Positions 54,792 to 64,000 of a DNA stretch of 64,000 nucleotides are shown in pieces. Source of the DNA: Siphonobacter curvatus. Lineage in GTDB: Bacteria; Bacteroidota; Bacteroidia; Cytophagales; Spirosomataceae. The position numbers were made by a program, and so were the translations under genes. The notes under the pieces were generated by a model. The model did no database searches. It saw only the letters and a program-made list of their open reading frames with translations, and was not told where the DNA came from. The first letter of the stretch is position 1; every line of letters starts with the position of its first letter. Location of the stretch: the NCBI RefSeq assembly GCF_002943425.1, contig NZ_PTRA01000006.1, positions 1 to 64,000 of the forward strand, given 5' to 3'.

Positions 54792-55958
54792 TCATAATTT
54801 CAAACGTATATTGATTTTACTCAATAGTTGAGCGGTTATCAGTACTAGACCCGCGAATGCCAGACTTTTTAATAAACCTACGCCTCCCGTCAACACAGCG
54901 TCGGGTAAGGACCTGCCCGTAAGCTCCGCCAGACTATAAAAATAATACGGTAATAGATAACAGGTCAGCGTATAGATGCCGGCGGGTTTGAGCCAAGTAA
55001 ACCAGTGTACCTTTTGGCCAATTTCGACTAAGCCATAAACGACTGCATACGTGAGCAAAGCAATACCAGTACAAAAAAATACCCAAGTAGGAGTTGCCTG
55101 TATCTTGGAAATGATAAAGTAAGCATGAGCGATAAAACCGGCTCCCAGCATTAGACAGCCCGCTCCCAACAGAAAGCTTAGCCCTCGAATCGAATCTTGT
55201 TTTCGTAGCAACAGAGTGGTTAGCAAACCAGCCATGGTAAAGGCGTGAAAAGCTCCATTACCTAAGATGATGTCCTTCACATCGAACCCTCCCACCTGCC
55301 AATCCGCGTGAGCGGCGATTGTCGTTAATGTGAAAAACAAGAAGGCTGCTGCCAGTGCTCCAACCTTCCCCTTCATTCCTAGATAAAGCAGTGCTGAAAC
55401 GCCGTAGCTCCAGCCGATCAGTCCCAGGATTCCCCACCACTGAGGCCGGAAGATTTGCGGATTTTCCGGTGTCCCTCCGCGGAATCGTACGGCCAGCACC
55501 AGCAAAATCACTATACCAATACCTTGTAGCACGCGGACCGTAGAGGAAGGAAAAGTTTTCGGATACACATTCCAGATCAGGAAAAAAGCCGTAACCATCA
55601 AAATCTGAAACCAGGCCGAAGAAAGACCAGTGAGGTTCGCATTGAGTTCCGGAACATTGACGGTAAAAATTCCCATCACCAGCAAAGCTAAGGTACGTAA
55701 TACAATATGCCCGGAAATCCGTACCGGGGATTCCCCTTTGGTCAATCGGGCATCTACCCCAAGCGGAATGGACATACCCAGAATGAAAAGAAAACAGGGA
55801 AACACCGTATCCGCCAGCCCCAGAAAATCTACGTCAGCCTCGGCGTGTTCCAACCAGGAAGGAATCGCCCGCAGTGTCCAGAGATCGTTGACAAAGATCA
55901 TGAGTAACATCGTCAATCCCCGAAATACGTCGATGGAAGGAATACGCGAATTTTTCAT
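54792..55958 (-). CDS. HGSNAT-like (DUF5009) membrane acyltransferase
   Basis: 388 residues with about ten membrane spans. The opening SIDVFRGLTMLLMIFVNDLWT, then FLGLADTVFPCFLFILGMSIPLG, is the signature of the heparan-alpha-glucosaminide N-acetyltransferase/YeiB-like family. The human enzyme transfers acetyl from cytosolic acetyl-CoA to a terminal glucosamine on the other side of the membrane. The gene lies 9 bp downstream of a GH20-like hydrolase gene, which fits a pathway that acetylates a terminal amino sugar and then removes it. The functional transfer is not proved. Confidence 0.85.
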   Translation of the reverse strand: MKNSRIPSIDVFRGLTMLLMIFVNDLWTLRAIPSWLEHAEADVDFLGLADTVFPCFLFILGMSIPLGVDARLTKGESPVRISGHIVLRTLALLVMGIFTVNVPELNANLTGLSSAWFQILMVTAFFLIWNVYPKTFPSSTVRVLQGIGIVILLVLAVRFRGGTPENPQIFRPQWWGILGLIGWSYGVSALLYLGMKGKVGALAAAFLFFTLTTIAAHADWQVGGFDVKDIILGNGAFHAFTMAGLLTTLLLRKQDSIRGLSFLLGAGCLMLGAGFIAHAYFIISKIQATPTWVFFCTGIALLTYAVVYGLVEIGQKVHWFTWLKPAGIYTLTCYLLPYYFYSLAELTGRSLPDAVLTGGVGLLKSLAFAGLVLITAQLLSKINIRLKL

Positions 55959-55967
55959 AGCAACAAA

Positions 55968-57065
55968 CTAGGGAGTTAGGCGGGTAATTTCACTGTACAG
56001 GTCCTGAAAACAATGCGTGGGCGTTTCTTCGGAAGTGCTTTTTTTGCGACCGTAGAATTCATCCAGAAAACTACCGGCGTCTGACCATACGGTTTGCATC
56101 ATCCCCTGATACAATTCTTTCATGGGCCGGGTAGCCGAGCGGCGAAACCGGAGCATGTCCTGTACCTGAGCAACGGCATTTTTAGGTTTCCGCCAGGGAC
56201 AGGTTACTACGCTGAGGCCTTTCATGGCAAAGTACACGGGCGTTTGGTCGGGGCGTTCGTAATGCCAGTCACAAATCATCACGTCTTTCGGAATCAGATC
56301 GATGGCCCGGTGGGTCTGGTTAAAGCTGGCTTCCCACATCCCCATACCCGTGACTTTACCCTCCAGTAAGCGATCTCCCCACATCCAGAGTTTGCGGTTT
56401 TTCTGGGCCAGATGGTCCCGAAGCGTGCGTACCTCTCCGGCGTATAGTTCAGCCGGGTCACGACCACCGCAGCGGGGGCAGCGGGCTTCCCCGATGTAAA
56501 AGACTTCATCTAGCCCGGCGTGGAAGGCAGAGGCTTCGAAGGCATCGCAAATTTCGTCCATCAGGTCGAATACGATCGAGTGTACCTCCGGATGCAGGGG
56601 ACAATAGCTTTTACAGTACAAGCCGTCGGAATTGGGCCATTCGTACTTGGCGGGCATTTTCACCCAGGGGGTTTCATCCAGTTGCGGGTATTTCTCCAGC
56701 AGATTTCCGGTTTTGTTAGCCCAGGACTGATGACCCAGCAAATTAACCTGTGGGATCAGCGTAATCTGGTGTTTGCGGCAGGTCTGCACGAGTCGGCGTA
56801 CCTCGGCTTTTGACAGGGCAACACTGTCGCGTAATTCAGGATGCGTTTTGAATTGATAGTTGTAGTCCACCCGCAGGACCAGCGTATTGACTTTTCGGGG
56901 AGCCAGTTCCGTATCAATGAATCGGATAAACTCATCGAGTCGATTTGGTAAGGGAGCGGCGATACAGAAGCCCCGAACGGGAAGCAATGTATCCAGCGGC
57001 ATTTGCTGAGCCTGGGTCTTCGCAACCGCCAGCACTAAAATCATCCACAGAAAAAGTCGTTTCAT
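55968..57065 (-). CDS. GH20-like beta-N-acetylhexosaminidase, secreted
   Basis: 365 residues with a signal ending at TQAQ. The catalytic barrel of family 20 is indicated by RVDYNYQF, LIPQVNLLGHQSW, and the acid/base pair in HAGLDEVFYIGE (Asp-Glu), followed by WMWGDRLLEG. A zinc-finger-like pair of Cys (CPRCGG) follows the catalytic pair. It is short for a GH20 enzyme (domain without the GH20b cap). It is co-transcribed with the HGSNAT-like acyltransferase, so the likely substrate is a terminal N-acetylhexosamine. Confidence 0.8.
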   Translation of the reverse strand: MKRLFLWMILVLAVAKTQAQQMPLDTLLPVRGFCIAAPLPNRLDEFIRFIDTELAPRKVNTLVLRVDYNYQFKTHPELRDSVALSKAEVRRLVQTCRKHQITLIPQVNLLGHQSWANKTGNLLEKYPQLDETPWVKMPAKYEWPNSDGLYCKSYCPLHPEVHSIVFDLMDEICDAFEASAFHAGLDEVFYIGEARCPRCGGRDPAELYAGEVRTLRDHLAQKNRKLWMWGDRLLEGKVTGMGMWEASFNQTHRAIDLIPKDVMICDWHYERPDQTPVYFAMKGLSVVTCPWRKPKNAVAQVQDMLRFRRSATRPMKELYQGMMQTVWSDAGSFLDEFYGRKKSTSEETPTHCFQDLYSEITRLTP

Positions 57066-57276
57066 AACGATAGTTAGAGGTCTAGCGTAAAGATACGTCA
57101 GCCAGCGAAGACCTGGCTTTAATTCTACGCTATCTTCCTTGATCTAGAAAATAATTTAACGGATTAATCGTCAAAATAGCTTTTTCCGGTACGCAGTGGG
57201 CATTCCTACGGTATTTTCTGGTTCGGAGCCGCTATTGTTTGGCCTCGCGAAGGCTTTTTAGGCTTTTCCGTTGGCA

Positions 57277-58704
57277 ATGCCCCATTTCTGTTTTAATTTT
57301 AATTATTTAAGCCGTACTCCGTACGCAGCTCCCCTGTTTTACTGGAAACTTATGTCTGTCGCGTCCTTCCTCATTGTCTTCTTTTTCATCAATTACGTCC
57401 GCAAAACGTTAAATACAGCGAATAAAAATGTCTGGCTGGATCAACAGCTGGTATACCTCCGGCATTTTTCTATCGCTCTGCTCGTAGGTCAGATGATCCT
57501 TCGGGATTCGGTACTGATTCGGATGGCCTGGCCACTCGTGCTCTTTGGGATGGTTCTTGCCGTTTTCAAGCTGGATTTTTTTCGTCCCGTACGTTCGGTT
57601 TCCATTTCGCTAATTCCTTTCACGGCAGTCTCGTTTTTATCTACGTTCATTCAATTGATAAACCAAGATTTCTATGAACAATTTGACGATTACCTCAATG
57701 CCGCCCGCTTTTTCGCTTTCGTTTGGGTATTCGCGTTGTGGCTAAATAACCGAAAGCAGGAAAAAGCGTTGGAAAATGAACGCCTCCGACGGGAACAACA
57801 GGAGCAACTCAGTAAGGTAACCGAAGCCCAGAAAAACGAATTAGAAGTACTCGTTGCCGAACGTACCGCCGAACTTCGTCTACAAAAAGAAGAACTGGAA
57901 AAAGCCCTTGATCACCTAAAAGCTACGCAGAACCAACTCATTCACGCGGAGAAGATGGCTTCGCTTGGCGAACTGACGGCGGGTATTGCCCACGAAATCC
58001 AGAATCCCCTCAATTTCGTCAATAACTTCTCGGAAGTCAGCGTCGAACTCGTGGAAGAACTTCGGGAAGAGTCACAGAAGGAAACCCTGGATACGGAATT
58101 AGTCAGTGAATTACTCAGCGATATTGAGCAGAACCTTCAGAAAATTCAGCACCACGGCAAGCGGGCGGATAGCATCGTAAAAGGGATGCTTCAACACTCG
58201 CGTACGTCTTCGGGGCAGAAAGAAGCGATTGATCTGAACGCTCTGGCTGACGAGTACCTGCGACTGGCCTACCATGGCTTGCGGGCTAAGGATAAAACCT
58301 TCAACGCCAAACTGGTAACGGACTTTGATGCCAGTTTAGGCAAAATCAACGTATTACCGCAGGATTTGGGCCGGGTACTGCTGAATATGTTCACCAATGC
58401 CTTTTACGCCGTCTCCGAACGCAAGCGTCAACAACCACAAGGATATGAACCTACGGTAAGCATTCAGACGCAACGTACCCGCAAACAAATCGAAATACGG
58501 ATTCGTGATAATGGTACGGGAATGCCCGAGCACGTCAAACAGAAAATTTTTCAGCCCTTTTTCACCACCAAACCCAGCGGACAGGGTACGGGTCTGGGCC
58601 TTTCCCTAAGCTATGACATCATTACCAAAGCCCACGGCGGTACGCTGGAAGTGATTTCCGAGCCGGATGCTTTTACTGAGTTTATTATTCGCCTGCCCGC
58701 CTAA
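57277..58704 (+). CDS. Membrane sensor histidine kinase
   Basis: About 475 residues from the ATG at 57277 (57352 is also possible; the TTG at 57271 is not needed). The N-terminal 170 residues hold about five membrane spans (ASFLIVFFFINYV; WPLVLFGMVLAVFKLDFF; ISLIPFTAVSFLSTFIQLI; ARFFAFVWVFALWL) without a periplasmic domain, so it may sense within the membrane. A long coiled coil (about 165-240) precedes the DHp helix with LGELTAGIAHEIQNPLNFVNNF. The ATPase domain has NMFTNAFYAVSE, RDNGTGMP and GTGLGLSLS. It is the first gene of the cyclase operon, and the following receivers are its likely partners. Confidence 0.92.
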   Translation: MPHFCFNFNYLSRTPYAAPLFYWKLMSVASFLIVFFFINYVRKTLNTANKNVWLDQQLVYLRHFSIALLVGQMILRDSVLIRMAWPLVLFGMVLAVFKLDFFRPVRSVSISLIPFTAVSFLSTFIQLINQDFYEQFDDYLNAARFFAFVWVFALWLNNRKQEKALENERLRREQQEQLSKVTEAQKNELEVLVAERTAELRLQKEELEKALDHLKATQNQLIHAEKMASLGELTAGIAHEIQNPLNFVNNFSEVSVELVEELREESQKETLDTELVSELLSDIEQNLQKIQHHGKRADSIVKGMLQHSRTSSGQKEAIDLNALADEYLRLAYHGLRAKDKTFNAKLVTDFDASLGKINVLPQDLGRVLLNMFTNAFYAVSERKRQQPQGYEPTVSIQTQRTRKQIEIRIRDNGTGMPEHVKQKIFQPFFTTKPSGQGTGLGLSLSYDIITKAHGGTLEVISEPDAFTEFIIRLPA

Positions 58705-58728
58705 TCCAACGATTTTAACGATTTCTTC

Positions 58729-59103
58729 ATGCATATATTAGTTGTAGACGACGAACCCGATGTTCAGTCGCTTTTTGAACAACGTTTTCGTCGCGAAATC
58801 CGAAGTGGAGAACTTCGCTTTATCTTTACTTTCTCCGGAGAAGAAGCCCTTACCCGCCTCGAGGATCAGCATTCGGAAATTGTACTCATTCTATCGGACA
58901 TCAATATGCCCGGGATGAGTGGTCTGGAATTACTGGAATCCATTCGACAGTCGCACCCCATGGCCCCGCCGCTGGTCATGATGATTACCGCTTACGGAGA
59001 CGAAGAAACGCACGCCAAAGCTCTCAGCCTAGGAGCGAATGATTTTTTAACCAAACCGCTTGATTTCAGCGAGTTAAAGCAGAAACTCAAAGACACATTA
59101 TGA
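58729..59103 (+). CDS. Single-domain response regulator of the cyclase operon
   Basis: 124 residues; acidic pocket VDDEPD, phosphoacceptor Asp57 in [13 protein letters not shown], Thr in [10 protein letters not shown], and Lys in [14 protein letters not shown]. No output domain. The stop overlaps the start of the receiver-cyclase gene (ATGA), and the domain is clearly similar to that protein's receiver (same SDINMPxM-G and KPxDF blocks). It may compete for phosphate with the cyclase receiver, or act as a sink. Confidence 0.92.
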
Positions 59104-60143
59104 AGGCAAAGATTTTGGTTGTGGATGATGAAACGGATTTGGAAATACTCATCAAGCAGAAATTTCGTCGTCAGATTAGGGAAGGAAAGTACGAATTCAT
59201 CTTCGCCCAGAATGGCGTGGAAGCCCTTCAGCAATTGCAGCAGCACCCGGATACGGATGTGGTGTTGAGTGACATCAACATGCCCGAAATGGATGGTTTA
59301 ACCCTGCTGGTGAAACTTCACGAAACCAATCCTATCGTTAAGGCGGTCATCGTTTCGGCCTACGGTGATATGGAAAACATCCGCGTGGCGATGAACCGGG
59401 GGGCGTACGATTTTCTGTGTAAACCTGTGGATTTTGAGGACTTGGAAGTGACCATGCAGAAGACGTTGAAGCACGTCGATCAGCTCCGGCAAACGCTGAA
59501 AGCCATCAAAGAAAACGATATTCTGCGGATGTACGTCGATGAAAACGTACTCCAGTTTATGACCCGTTCGGAGTTCGAATCTTCGCTGACGGCTAACGAA
59601 ACGGTACAGGGCACCGTCGTGTTCGTGGACATTTGCGGATTCACAGCGATCACCGAACGCGAGCCCGCTGATGTAGTAGTGAAGCTCATCAACTCGTACT
59701 TCGAAGTGATCGTAAAGGCCATCATTGCCCAGGGTGGCTATATCGATAAGTTCATTGGTGATGCCGTTATGGCCGTATTCCGGGGTGAATTTCACCTGGA
59801 TCGGGCCATTGAAGCCTCGCTGGCCGTGCGTACGCAATTGTCGGAGATGGAAGAAGTTTTACCCGATCAGACCTTCCTCCCGCAGGTAGCCATTGGTATC
59901 AACTCGGGAGAAATGGTTTCGGGAAACATTGGTTCGGCTTCGCTCAAACGACTGGATTATACAGTGATTGGTGATACCGTCAATCTGGCCCAGCGATTGC
60001 AATCCGTGGCAAAACCCGGGCAGATCCTGATCAGTGATGCCGTGTATCAGCAAGTCAAAGAATCCTTCCAAGGTCAGCCTTTGGGCGAAATTACGCTCAA
60101 AAATAAAGCCCAACCCGTGGCAGTAGTCGAAGTACAGGCTTAA
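59100..60143 (+). CDS. Receiver-linked class III adenylate cyclase
   Basis: 347 residues. A receiver domain at 1-120 has Asp58 ([13 protein letters not shown]) and Lys108 ([11 protein letters not shown]). A class III cyclase domain at about 165-345 carries both metal Asp residues (Asp177 in FVDICGFT; Asp221 in GDAVMAVF), Lys217 and Thr288, which specify adenine, and the transition-state pair Asn295/Arg299 (NLAQRL). All catalytic positions are intact, so it should make cAMP, controlled by phosphorylation at Asp58 from the operon's kinase. A transporter with a cyclic-nucleotide-binding domain is encoded just beyond, and an HD phosphohydrolase follows directly. Confidence 0.93.
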
Positions 60144-60179
60144 TCGCACCACATGCATCCCTTCCAAACCTCTCCTAGT

Positions 60180-60773
60180 ATGAACCTTATACAAGCCGAA
60201 GCATTCATTCTTGATTTACTACGGCAACAATTACCCGAAACGCTCTACTACCACGGTCTACACCATACGGAAGATGTGGTTCGGGCCGCCGAATGGCTGG
60301 CTCGGAGCGAAAAGATCGAAGATCAGGAATCGCTTATGCTATTACGTACAGCAGCCTTGTACCACGATTGTGGCTTCATGTATACCTATGAAAACCACGA
60401 AGAAGCGGGTTGTGAAGTGGTGGAGCAATGCTTGCCTACATTTGGCTATTCAACCGGGCAGATTGAGTTGATTTGCGGGATGATTCGGGCAACGAAGGTT
60501 CCGCAAAACCCGCAAACGCATCTGGAACAAATCCTCTGCGATGCGGATTTGGATTACCTAGGTCGGCTGGGTTTCGAGTCCATTTCCCATACTCTCTACC
60601 AGGAATTACAGGCCCGACACCTGATCGGTACGGAAGCAGAATGGCTACAGAAACAGATCACTTTTTTAAGCTCCCATCAGTATTGGACGGCCACGGCTCT
60701 CGCTTATCGGCAACCCGCCAAAGCCGTCCAACTGGAGCATCTGCAAAAGCAGGCTACTTTGCTTGAGCCGTAA
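60180..60773 (+). CDS. HD-domain phosphohydrolase
   Basis: The ATG at 60180 gives 197 residues (60153 is possible). The HD set is present: His28/29 in HGLHHTEDVV, His62-Asp63 in LYHDCGF, His73 in YENHEEAG, and Asp121-Asp125 in CDADLDYLG. HD proteins of this size hydrolyse cyclic or other nucleotides, and some are HDc-type phosphodiesterases. Placed 36 bp after the adenylate cyclase gene, it is a candidate for degrading the messenger, but this is inferred from position. The stop lies inside the end of the facing transporter gene (20-bp overlap). Confidence 0.85.
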   Translation: MNLIQAEAFILDLLRQQLPETLYYHGLHHTEDVVRAAEWLARSEKIEDQESLMLLRTAALYHDCGFMYTYENHEEAGCEVVEQCLPTFGYSTGQIELICGMIRATKVPQNPQTHLEQILCDADLDYLGRLGFESISHTLYQELQARHLIGTEAEWLQKQITFLSSHQYWTATALAYRQPAKAVQLEHLQKQATLLEP

Positions 60774-63700
60774 CCACTTCATTCTGATGGCGAATCCGCT
60801 GGCAAAGTACCCGCATCACGTTCCGCAGGACTTCGTCGCGTTCTTCCATCAGGTCATAAAAATCTTCCTGATCGATCCGGAATAACGTAGCGGCCGTTTG
60901 GGCAATCACCGTAGCCGAACGGGGTTCGGAATCCAGCAGGGCCAGTTCGCCGAAGAGATCACCCCGGCCCATTTCGGCCAGTAGCGTATCCTGATCATAA
61001 ATTTCTATCTCCCCCGACAGAATTACGAACATACTATCGCCCAGATCGCCCTTTCGGATAATCACCTCTCCCGCCGGGAAATGCACCTGTTTCATAATCG
61101 GAATGATACTGGCGAGTACGTTTTCGGCGGTACTGGCAAACAAAGGCGTATTCTTCAGAATCTGTACCAGTTCGTGAGCCGAATGGCTGGACGTTGCGTG
61201 AGCGTGCATAGGCGTATTTTTTTCAAAAGCAGCGAGCGTGTTTTCCGCACTTTCGCTGAGTAAATGAATCGGATGTGATAGATAAGCCGTCACCAGTTTC
61301 GGATCCCCCACCCAGGAATTCCAGCGACGCAGGGCTACGCTGACGGTCCACTCCGTAAACAGGGTCGTTCCTTCCTCCAGAATAGAGGCTACCGACTCAG
61401 CCATCGATTCGGGTACAATGGAAGCCGACGCTTCCAGTTGCGTACGGAACAAGCGATACACGGGCCGGGGCACCAGGTTTTCGAGCATTTCGAGGGCGTT
61501 GGCACTCCGCTCCTGTGAAGGGTGTTGCAGACTCTGCTGAATCTGATTCAAAGCTTCGGCATCGTATAGTTTACTGAGTATCCGTAAAATTCGTTTCAGT
61601 ACTCGCTCCATTTCGTAACCCAGAGCCGATTGCCATTCGGCATCCATCGCGGCGTACTGTCCCGCCTGAATCTGCTCGGCCAAAGCGAGTTCTTCGGAAA
61701 GCAACGTCTCAAAAAACAGTCGATTTTCGGATGATGAGGGAAAATGCCGCAACGAATGCAGAGCCGTTTCCCGTACCGTGCGGTCCGATTCTCCGGCCAG
61801 TCGCATCAACCATTGCTCGCTTTCGGGCGTTTGCAGGGTACTCAGCAACTGAGCCAGCATGCGTCGCTGTTCGGTGGGAGCGTCCAGCAGAGGCGTAAAG
61901 GCTGATAAGTTTTCACTCGCGGCCTGACGTAAGTTCCGCAGCGTAGCTCGTCCGTACGAACGGTCGTGTAGTAAAGTTAATAATTGAGGGACCAGTGACG
62001 AATGTCTACCCGCCGTTTCAATGGCCTGTTTTACCACCGCAGGCTGGGTACTTTGTAAGCCTTTCTGAACAAAAGCCGTATACTCCGTTAAGTGCAAATG
62101 ACGGATTACTTCGAGAGCCGCAACCTGCTCTTCTTCGGTGGATGCGTTCACCCAGCGATCCAACTGTTCGCGGGCAATGCTATCGGTACGATCTTTCTGC
62201 AGGCGTCCGAGGAGAGCTCCTTTCTGAATACCCCGGTCGGGCGATTCGAGCAACTCCCGAATGGGCCCCGCCTGCTGAGCCAGGAGCTGGGCCGTCCGCT
62301 GGCGTACCTGCGGATGCGTATCCGTCAGTAAGGGTTGCAAGGGCATTTGTTTGGCCTCCGGACCCAGGCGTTCCAGAACCCCCAACCGCACCAACGCATC
62401 GGGATGTCGCAACAGCGGCAATGTTTTCTGAGCTAGTAAAGTCGGTTGATTTTCTTCAAACCACGCTACTGCTGCCAGTACCCGCTCGGGTGAAGGACTC
62501 GTTAAATCCTGTTCGGCAGCCAGAGCTATTTCGCCAGGCAGGGCTACCTGTTCGCCGGGCAGGAATCGCCGGGATAAGGCATCGCCCAGGGTATGCAGAT
62601 AAAACCGATAGGCCCGTCGAATGAGCAGACCCGTGGCTACTGGAAAAATCAGCCAGAACCAGATGACTTTGCTTTCGCTCAGCGATAACCACTGCGAAAG
62701 TCCCAGCAACAAACCTGCCAGACCCAGGCCCAGCGGTTCGTACATGCCTTTGGCCAGGGTATGGCCCAGCAGCCGTTGTTGCGGCGTCAGGGGTTGGAAA
62801 AGGACCAGAAAAACCGCATCAAATAAAGAACGACGAATGACCTCTACCGAAACGTAGAGCAAGCAGGCCCACACTAACAGAACCGTTTCGTCGCCTACTA
62901 CACTCCGGGTAATGGCCAATCCCAATAATCCAATCAATGCTACCAGCGGTAATACTAATAAGGAAGTCTGCACCCCCAAACGATCCAGTGCCCGCCGGGA
63001 CAGCAGGAGCTTCACCAGCATCGCCAGTACATAGGTACCCGCCAGCCAGTAGCTGACGTAAGCAATTACTTCGGACTGATCATGAAAGCGGTGTTTGACG
63101 TCCAGAAAGAAGTTAAACTCAATTTTGGTTGCGAAACACGCCACGGTCAGGATACTCAGACACATGAAAAAGACCAGTTCGCTCCCACCAAACAACTGCT
63201 GAATCAAACGCGATTGTGGACGACGACGGGCCGTCGAACGATCGCGGGTACGAATGGCGTGCGAACGCAGCGTTAGTTTCAAGGTGAATAAAGCTCCCAG
63301 AAAGGCCAGTAACGAAACGCCCAGTAAGGTCAGCAAATCGGCGTGAGCGTGTACCAGAGCGGCCAGTACGGCCCCCAGAGCTTTGGCGGGCATGTCGCCT
63401 GAACTGATGATACTAAAGAGGCGTTTGCCCTGCCGCGTGTCGAACACCACCGCCGATACTCCCCAGAATTCCAGACTGGTCAGCAGATAGATCATCCGGT
63501 ACCCGACCATGATGCCAATGGCCGCTATGATCGAATGTCCGACCCAAACCACCAGCATCACCAACAGGGTCATAACACTTACGGTCCAGAGTACGCGTAA
63601 CGCGACGGAACTCAGCCCCAGATGATGTTCGTAATGAGCGTAGGCTTTACCGATCAGAATCATTCCAATAGCCGAGGCTATGTACGCCAGGGGTAAACTC

Positions 63701-63858
63701 GTAGCCGGGTCATTTTCCAGTAGAATGGCATTCGCGGCTACATATAATTGAATCGTTCCAATTCCTAAGAGAAAGTGATGGAGGAAAAAAAGCCAGACGG
63801 TACGGGTTTCTTCAGGATGTATTCCTAAATAACGACGGAAGCCATCGGTAGTAAGCAT
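60754..63858 (-). CDS. Npt/NTT-type transporter with HEAT repeats and cyclic-nucleotide-binding domain
   Basis: The ATG at 63858 gives 1034 residues; the frame's TTG at 63864 adds only two. Residues about 1-430 form a 10-12 span MFS-like domain of the Npt1/Npt2 (ADP/ATP carrier-like) type: IASAIGMILIGKAYAHYEHH, IMVGYRMIYLLTSLEFWGVSAVVFDTRQGKRLFS. Residues about 440-880 are HEAT-like helical repeats (HPDALVRLGVLERLG; HPQVRQRTAQLLAQQ; DRTVRETALHSLRH). Residues about 900-1020 form a cyclic-nucleotide-binding domain: FPAGEVIIRKGDLGDSMFVILSGEIEIYD and GDLFGELALLDSEPRSATV. The design suggests transport controlled by cNMP binding. It faces the cyclase operon with overlapping 3' ends. The transported substrate is unknown. 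Confidence 0.87.
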   Translation of the reverse strand: MLTTDGFRRYLGIHPEETRTVWLFFLHHFLLGIGTIQLYVAANAILLENDPATSLPLAYIASAIGMILIGKAYAHYEHHLGLSSVALRVLWTVSVMTLLVMLVVWVGHSIIAAIGIMVGYRMIYLLTSLEFWGVSAVVFDTRQGKRLFSIISSGDMPAKALGAVLAALVHAHADLLTLLGVSLLAFLGALFTLKLTLRSHAIRTRDRSTARRRPQSRLIQQLFGGSELVFFMCLSILTVACFATKIEFNFFLDVKHRFHDQSEVIAYVSYWLAGTYVLAMLVKLLLSRRALDRLGVQTSLLVLPLVALIGLLGLAITRSVVGDETVLLVWACLLYVSVEVIRRSLFDAVFLVLFQPLTPQQRLLGHTLAKGMYEPLGLGLAGLLLGLSQWLSLSESKVIWFWLIFPVATGLLIRRAYRFYLHTLGDALSRRFLPGEQVALPGEIALAAEQDLTSPSPERVLAAVAWFEENQPTLLAQKTLPLLRHPDALVRLGVLERLGPEAKQMPLQPLLTDTHPQVRQRTAQLLAQQAGPIRELLESPDRGIQKGALLGRLQKDRTDSIAREQLDRWVNASTEEEQVAALEVIRHLHLTEYTAFVQKGLQSTQPAVVKQAIETAGRHSSLVPQLLTLLHDRSYGRATLRNLRQAASENLSAFTPLLDAPTEQRRMLAQLLSTLQTPESEQWLMRLAGESDRTVRETALHSLRHFPSSSENRLFFETLLSEELALAEQIQAGQYAAMDAEWQSALGYEMERVLKRILRILSKLYDAEALNQIQQSLQHPSQERSANALEMLENLVPRPVYRLFRTQLEASASIVPESMAESVASILEEGTTLFTEWTVSVALRRWNSWVGDPKLVTAYLSHPIHLLSESAENTLAAFEKNTPMHAHATSSHSAHELVQILKNTPLFASTAENVLASIIPIMKQVHFPAGEVIIRKGDLGDSMFVILSGEIEIYDQDTLLAEMGRGDLFGELALLDSEPRSATVIAQTAATLFRIDQEDFYDLMEERDEVLRNVMRVLCQRIRHQNEVVTAQAK

Positions 63859-64000
63859 TGCCAAGCAGTTAATTGAGCGTTTTAAAGGTTAAGTATAGCT
63901 ATTTTTCGCGAGCTACGGACGCAGAAACATAAATCTTCTGTTTATTTGAAGGCTTTTCTGCTCCATTTCGGCCGTTATTTGTGCTTCTCAACTCCTACCT
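63859..64000. other. Upstream region of the transporter gene
   Basis: 142 bp to the window edge, AT rich, with a minus-strand promoter presumably inside. No other feature can be supported. Confidence 0.35.

What the first reader, a model, noticed from the sequence alone, without database searches (positions are those of the whole stretch)
57277..63858. Phosphorelay to cAMP to transporter module in one locus
A membrane histidine kinase, a free receiver, a receiver-linked class III adenylate cyclase with intact catalytic residues (Asp177, Asp221, Lys217, Asn295, Arg299) and an HD phosphohydrolase form one operon with 4-bp and short spacings. The facing gene encodes an Npt/NTT-like carrier with HEAT repeats and a cyclic-nucleotide-binding domain. 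Every step of a signalling chain is present: input, output messenger, candidate messenger removal, and a membrane target. Each domain is known; the combination as a closed circuit controlling a nucleotide-type carrier is what may be new. That the HD protein removes the messenger is an inference from position alone.
Basis: partly seen in the sequence, partly recalled or inferred. Interest (0 to 1): 0.9.

Follow-up and report, generated by a model that had tools for sequence, protein, structure and literature searches.

The report
Cyclic-nucleotide circuit beside a membrane carrier
Five neighbouring genes in a Siphonobacter-like bacterium look like a complete small circuit (sensor, messenger-making enzyme, likely messenger-destroying enzyme and a membrane carrier with a messenger-binding part), and these genes tend to stay together in related bacteria while nearly everything around them changes.

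The parts
57271..58704 (+). Membrane sensor histidine kinase (477 aa from TTG 57271; 475 from ATG 57277): hydrophobic N-terminal part, HisKA, HATPase_c
   Evidence: hydropathy; no other HK of its genome matches it at E<=1e-30; near the carrier in 67 of 77 relatives' loci
58729..59103 (+). Stand-alone receiver (124 aa), possible shared phosphate acceptor, intermediate or sink (role inferred)
   Evidence: Pfam Response_reg; in 54 of 77 loci
59100..60143 (+). Receiver-linked class III nucleotide cyclase (347 aa); D58 phospho-site; D177, D221 metals; K217, T288 base selection; N295, R299 catalysis
   Evidence: Pfam; residues invariant in 22 and in 57 of 57 proteins; only PF00211 match in the genome
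60153..60773 (+). HD-domain protein, candidate cyclic-nucleotide phosphodiesterase (206 aa; start more likely ATG 60180)
   Evidence: Pfam HD; invariant H34, H38, H71, D72, H82, D130, D132 in 27 proteins; AF2 pLDDT 96.7; fold comparison; linkage to cyclases
60754..63864 (-). NTT-type carrier with HEAT solenoid and C-terminal cyclic-nucleotide-binding domain (1036 aa; ATG start probably 63858)
62542..63864 (-). Membrane carrier domain, about residues 1-441 (MFS/NTT fold)
60763..61182 (-). CNBD, residues 895-1034, with cassette FGELALLDSEPRSA (residues 971-984) and C-helix R1023, N1028
   Evidence: cassette residues and N1028 in 80 of 80 loci, R1023 in 79

Best explanation
This is a dedicated second-messenger circuit of Cytophagales. 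The membrane HK phosphorylates the receiver(s); the phosphorylated receiver domain turns on the class III cyclase; the cyclic nucleotide (most likely cAMP) binds the C-terminal CNBD of the NTT-HEAT-CNBD carrier, and the HEAT solenoid passes the change to the carrier and changes its transport rate; the HD protein hydrolyses the messenger and resets the system. Shown here: the parts, intact residues, the fold class of the carrier and of the HD protein, and conserved linkage in several arrangements. Inferred: all catalytic and binding events, messenger identity, cargo, and whether the messenger opens or closes the carrier.
For: Only the module's genes are conserved around the carrier. 81 of 82 carrier genomes have the cyclase; of 81 pairs, 59 share a contig, 50 lie within 15 kb and 22 within 2 kb. 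Arrangements differ while linkage stays: convergent cyclase-HD/carrier; carrier-HK-receiver-cyclase collinear; divergent; cyclase/carrier directly convergent with 40-199 bp between matches in 13 of 16 Hymenobacter loci; HD/carrier only in Larkinella. One PF00211 match and one CNBD with a canonical cassette in this genome. Residues invariant. NTT fold. HD next to or fused with other class III cyclases, metal residues kept in 5 of 5 fused versions examined, PDE-like coverage.
Against: 17 of 98 cyclase genomes lack the carrier; in 10 of these the HD gene lies within about 205 bp of the cyclase, and in the six of them whose loci I fetched a YitT-type membrane protein follows or is fused to HD, so the cyclase is not tied to this carrier alone. 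Of 81 pairs, 31 are not within 15 kb: 22 on different contigs, 9 on one contig but farther apart. In the class sample 13 of 17 genomes with a strong cyclase match have no carrier match, and 6 of 10 carrier matches (26-33% identity) lack the cyclase. Having one cyclase is not general: relatives, including three of the five other genomes of the same genus, have two or more, and some have further CNBDs of this kind. The Lys-Glu motif of Chlamydia NTT1 is not kept in this carrier, so ATP/ADP need not be the cargo. N1028 sits where a cUMP-binding Pycsar effector has its uracil-selecting Asn (my alignment), so cAMP is not certain.
Confidence: 0.6

Rival explanations
1. Same circuit, but the messenger is not cAMP: a pyrimidine cyclic nucleotide (cUMP or cCMP) or cGMP is made and sensed.
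For: The CNBD's best defence-library match is PycTIR (E 1.1e-22) and the cyclase matches PycC models (best E 4.9e-25). N1028, invariant in 80 of 80, falls at the position of PsPycTIR N143, which selects uracil (PMC11224242, passages; the mapping is mine, from profile ranges). By my mapping F181 and K217 of the cyclase match two of the three pocket residues of the pyrimidine cyclase AnPycC (F60, K104). cGMP-dependent protein kinase CNBDs head the PDB list.
Against: PycC models match class III cyclases broadly. The cyclase has K217 with T288, the adenine-selecting type as I recall; F181 and K217 are also usual in adenylate cyclases as I recall; the third AnPycC residue F109 maps to A222 (57 of 57). 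Mycobacterial CRP, a cAMP receptor, aligns with residue 135 at N1028 (chain ranges) and I recall Asn there; two papers did not confirm it.
Confidence: 0.15
2. The HD protein does not destroy the messenger but acts as a cyclic-nucleotide-responsive regulator of membrane proteins, or hydrolyses another nucleotide (for instance one moved by the carrier).
For: HD is fused to membrane modules without a CNBD: PycTM in the own genome (L075) and YitT in L057 and L058. The best Foldseek hits are 2pq7, YpgQ and 2pjq, with PDEs below. 14 of 16 Hymenobacter carrier loci have no HD gene in the flank.
Against: Metal residues and the His pair are kept in all 27 aligned proteins and in 5 of 5 fused versions, as expected of an enzyme; direct cyclase-HD fusions exist (L051, L062); structural alignment covers 191 of 206 residues on PDE10A.
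Confidence: 0.2
3. The genes are neighbours that merely travel together; the cyclase serves Crp-type regulators elsewhere.
For: 21 other PF00027 domains exist in the genome; the cyclase occurs widely without the carrier.
Against: None of the other 21 shows the Gly-Glu...Arg cassette (motif search and reading). Linkage survives rearrangement and loss of nearly every other neighbour.
Confidence: 0.05

Closest known systems
NTT-HEAT-cNBD fusion proteins (Major, Embley and Williams 2017, PMC5381601)
   Same: Same domain order; the authors list 43 Bacteroidetes NTT sequences and suggest that cAMP from adenylate cyclase could tune NTT uptake (passages).
   Different: In the passages I saw they name no specific partner cyclase, kinase or HD gene; the conserved partner set is the addition here.
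SLC9C1, cAMP-regulated Na+/H+ exchanger of sperm (PMC6052114, PMC10620092; search listing and abstract starts only)
   Same: A secondary carrier with a CNBD; Foldseek's top matches by E-value over the full length, though TM-scores are only about 0.12.
   Different: Different exchanger, has a voltage sensor, eukaryotic; no HEAT solenoid as far as I recall.
ATP/ADP translocators AtNTT1 and Chlamydia pneumoniae NTT1
   Different: 12-14% identity, canonical Lys-Glu motif not kept, extra HEAT and CNBD.
Class I cyclic-nucleotide phosphodiesterases (PDE10A, PDE7A)
   Different: About 16% identity; only 3 of 27 relatives touch PF00233, best E 0.097; smaller.
Pycsar anti-phage systems
   Same: Class III cyclase plus a CNBD or membrane effector in one locus; the CNBD matches PycTIR models.
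   Different: The effector is a carrier, not TIR or PycTM; two-component input; linkage conserved across genera.

Membership tests
Class III nucleotide cyclase | Two metal Asp, transition-state Asn and Arg, base-selecting residues | tested here: met
   D177, D221, N295, R299, K217, T288 invariant
Class III nucleotide cyclase | Makes cAMP | not testable with these tools
   Needs an assay; the K/T pair favours adenine by recalled knowledge only
NTT nucleotide transporters | NTT version of the 12-helix carrier fold | tested here: met
NTT nucleotide transporters | Conserved charged motif of ATP/ADP exchangers | tested here: not met
   The Lys-Glu motif of CpNTT1 aligns with a hydrophobic stretch here; I therefore say NTT-fold carrier, not ATP/ADP translocase
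Canonical cyclic-nucleotide-binding domain | Phosphate-binding cassette Gly-Glu...Arg-x-Ala | tested here: met
   80 of 80; the only one among 22 in the genome
Class I cyclic-nucleotide phosphodiesterase | Fold | tested here: inconclusive
Class I cyclic-nucleotide phosphodiesterase | Family profile PF00233 | tested here: not met
   3 of 27 members touch it, best E 0.097
Pycsar system | Pyrimidine cyclase with TIR or TM effector | tested here: not met
   The effector is a carrier; PADLOC hits are to the cyclase and CNBD portions; base choice of the cyclase not tested
Two-component system | HisKA/HATPase_c and receiver with phospho-Asp | tested here: met
   D58 of the cyclase receiver 57 of 57

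The most novel reading that the evidence does not exclude
The HD protein founds a bacterial family of class-I-type cyclic-mononucleotide phosphodiesterases. With class III cyclases it forms a modular Bacteroidota toolkit whose membrane output is exchangeable: NTT-HEAT-CNBD carrier, YitT-DUF2179, CNBD-NTE-patatin lipase or PycTM. In the carrier version the messenger gates transport directly, possibly through a non-cAMP messenger read by the invariant Asn1028.
Probability: 0.3. Interest if true: 0.85.

Novelty: new variant of a known kind. Interest (0 to 1): 0.72.

Why it matters
A review seen in passages describes bacterial cAMP signalling as acting mainly on gene expression (PMC10745434). Here a genome with one class III cyclase match and one canonical cyclic-nucleotide receptor points to a circuit that would act on a membrane carrier directly. 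It gives a concrete partner set for the uncharacterised NTT-HEAT-CNBD proteins and names a candidate phosphodiesterase family. Each step can be tested with purified proteins and gene deletions.

Tried and rejected
Pfam for the membrane part: no model matched residues 1-440 up to E 1; the fold comparison was more telling. Pfam PDEase_I for the HD relatives: essentially negative. Asn at the CRP Ser128 position in mycobacterial CRP: search, then find in two papers, no occurrence, so that residue stays recalled. Searches for a structure paper on AtNTT1 and for class IIIb cyclases gave nothing that I used. Print searches for this circuit; only PMC5381601 was relevant; preprints are not held and most subscription journals are missing. 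Plasmid search for the HD protein: 2 records, not informative. Considered and rejected: a Pycsar defence system (no TIR or TM effector); chance neighbours (control). No correction for shared ancestry was made to the Fisher test (p 5e-24); I rely on the differing arrangements and the flank control instead.

Full report
WHAT IS THERE. Four genes run on the + strand: HK (57271/57277-58704), receiver (58729-59103), receiver-cyclase (59100-60143) and HD protein (60153-60773, start more likely 60180). They face a carrier gene on the - strand (60754-63864); the last two genes overlap tail to tail by 20 bp. The nearest relatives are Siphonobacter sequences.

IS IT A UNIT? I took 80 named carrier loci with up to 10 kb on each side (the best 80 of 181 candidates). 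57 of 80 hold the cyclase, 39 the HD gene, 65 either; some flanks are cut by contig ends. As a control I dropped the three closest Siphonobacter loci and asked, for every ORF of at least 100 aa from 44,359 to 76,896, in how many of 77 loci a homologue (>=35% identity over half the length) lies near the carrier. HK 67, receiver 54, cyclase 54, HD 36; of 19 other ORFs, 18 score 0 and one (1036 aa, 66,612-69,722) scores 8. The HK count is fairly specific: in the own genome no other HK reaches E 1e-30, although many relatives' loci hold a second, longer kinase of the same kind. The order varies: cyclase-HD facing the carrier (Siphonobacter, Dyadobacter); carrier-HK-receiver-cyclase in one direction (several Spirosoma, Emticicia); divergent (Arsenicibacter, Rudanella); cyclase facing the carrier directly (13 of 16 Hymenobacter loci); HD facing the carrier with the RR-cyclase elsewhere (Larkinella). 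Linkage that survives rearrangement argues for function.

CO-OCCURRENCE. In 150 genomes of the family, 103 match the cyclase domain at E<=1e-20 and 83 the carrier at E<=1e-20. I kept 98 and 82 strong matches, dropping five genomes with weaker or fused cyclases (G014, G106, G114, G131, G143) and one with a weak carrier match (G125). 81 genomes have both, 1 the carrier only (G013, 82% complete), 17 the cyclase only, 51 neither; Fisher p 5e-24, not corrected for ancestry. Of 81 pairs, 59 share a contig, 50 lie within 15 kb, 34 within 5 kb, 22 within 2 kb; 22 are on different contigs and 9 on one contig but farther apart. In 295 class genomes the picture is looser: 17 strong cyclases (three more are weak), 10 carriers, 4 genomes with both. 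So the cyclase is wider than its link to this carrier.

THE CYCLASE AND ITS RECEPTOR. The genome has one PF00211 match and 22 PF00027 domains. Only the carrier's shows the Gly-Glu...Arg cassette (FGELALLDSEPRSA); the other 21 do not. This one-to-one state is the window genome's: many family genomes have 2-5 cyclases, and some have other CNBDs similar to this one, among them the NTE-patatin proteins. In 80 carrier loci the cassette residues and N1028 are invariant and R1023 is kept in 79; in 57 cyclases D58, D177, F181, K217, D221, A222, T288, N295, R299 are invariant. K plus T is, as I recall, the adenine-selecting pair of class IIIb cyclases. Caution: PsPycTIR N143 selects uracil at the position of E. 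coli CRP S128 (PMC11224242, passages), and N1028 falls there by my alignment; two of three AnPycC pocket residues also match by my mapping (F181, K217), the third does not (A222). cUMP is not excluded.

ALTERNATIVE OUTPUTS. In carrier-less genomes a YitT membrane protein follows or is fused to the HD protein beside the RR-cyclase: L040, L046, L047, L048 and, beside a more distant cyclase, L050 (separate genes); L057, L058 (fused). Pfam was run on L046, L057, L058; the others are matches to the L046 protein. YitT also follows the cyclase-HD fusion in L051.

KNOWN OR NEW. Major et al. 2017 described NTT-HEAT-cNBD and suggested cAMP control (passages). I found no report of the partner circuit. 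It would work like SLC9C1 with its cyclase; it is not a member of that family.

Noticed in passing
L040, L046, L047, L048, L050, L051, L057, L058: YitT membrane protein (Pfam YitT_membrane+DUF2179 in L046, L057, L058) next to or fused with the HD protein, beside a class III cyclase, in genomes without a carrier match: a second, unexplored membrane output.
   Followed up: partly
L063, L064, L066, L068: Class III cyclase + HD + CNBD-NTE P-loop-patatin triple: looks like a cyclic-nucleotide-controlled phospholipase.
   Followed up: partly
L075:6397-7566 (G000:C1, own genome): HD paralogue fused to PycTM, the Pycsar effector membrane domain; HD metal residues kept.
   Followed up: partly
L079 (G060): In a near-identical Siphonobacter genome the carrier reads as two overlapping ORFs (293 and 755 aa), a frameshift or sequencing error.
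   Followed up: no
L043, L052, L086, L091, L092, L094: A second, longer kinase (651-767 aa) matching the window HK lies in these loci.
   Followed up: no
L139: Record titled Flavobacterium sp. SUN052 carries the module (carrier 44%, cyclase 71% identity) otherwise seen in Cytophagales; mislabelled or transferred.
   Followed up: no
window 54792-57065 (-): GH20-type glycosidase next to a DUF5009/HGSNAT-like membrane protein, probably unrelated to the circuit (0 of 77 loci).
   Followed up: no
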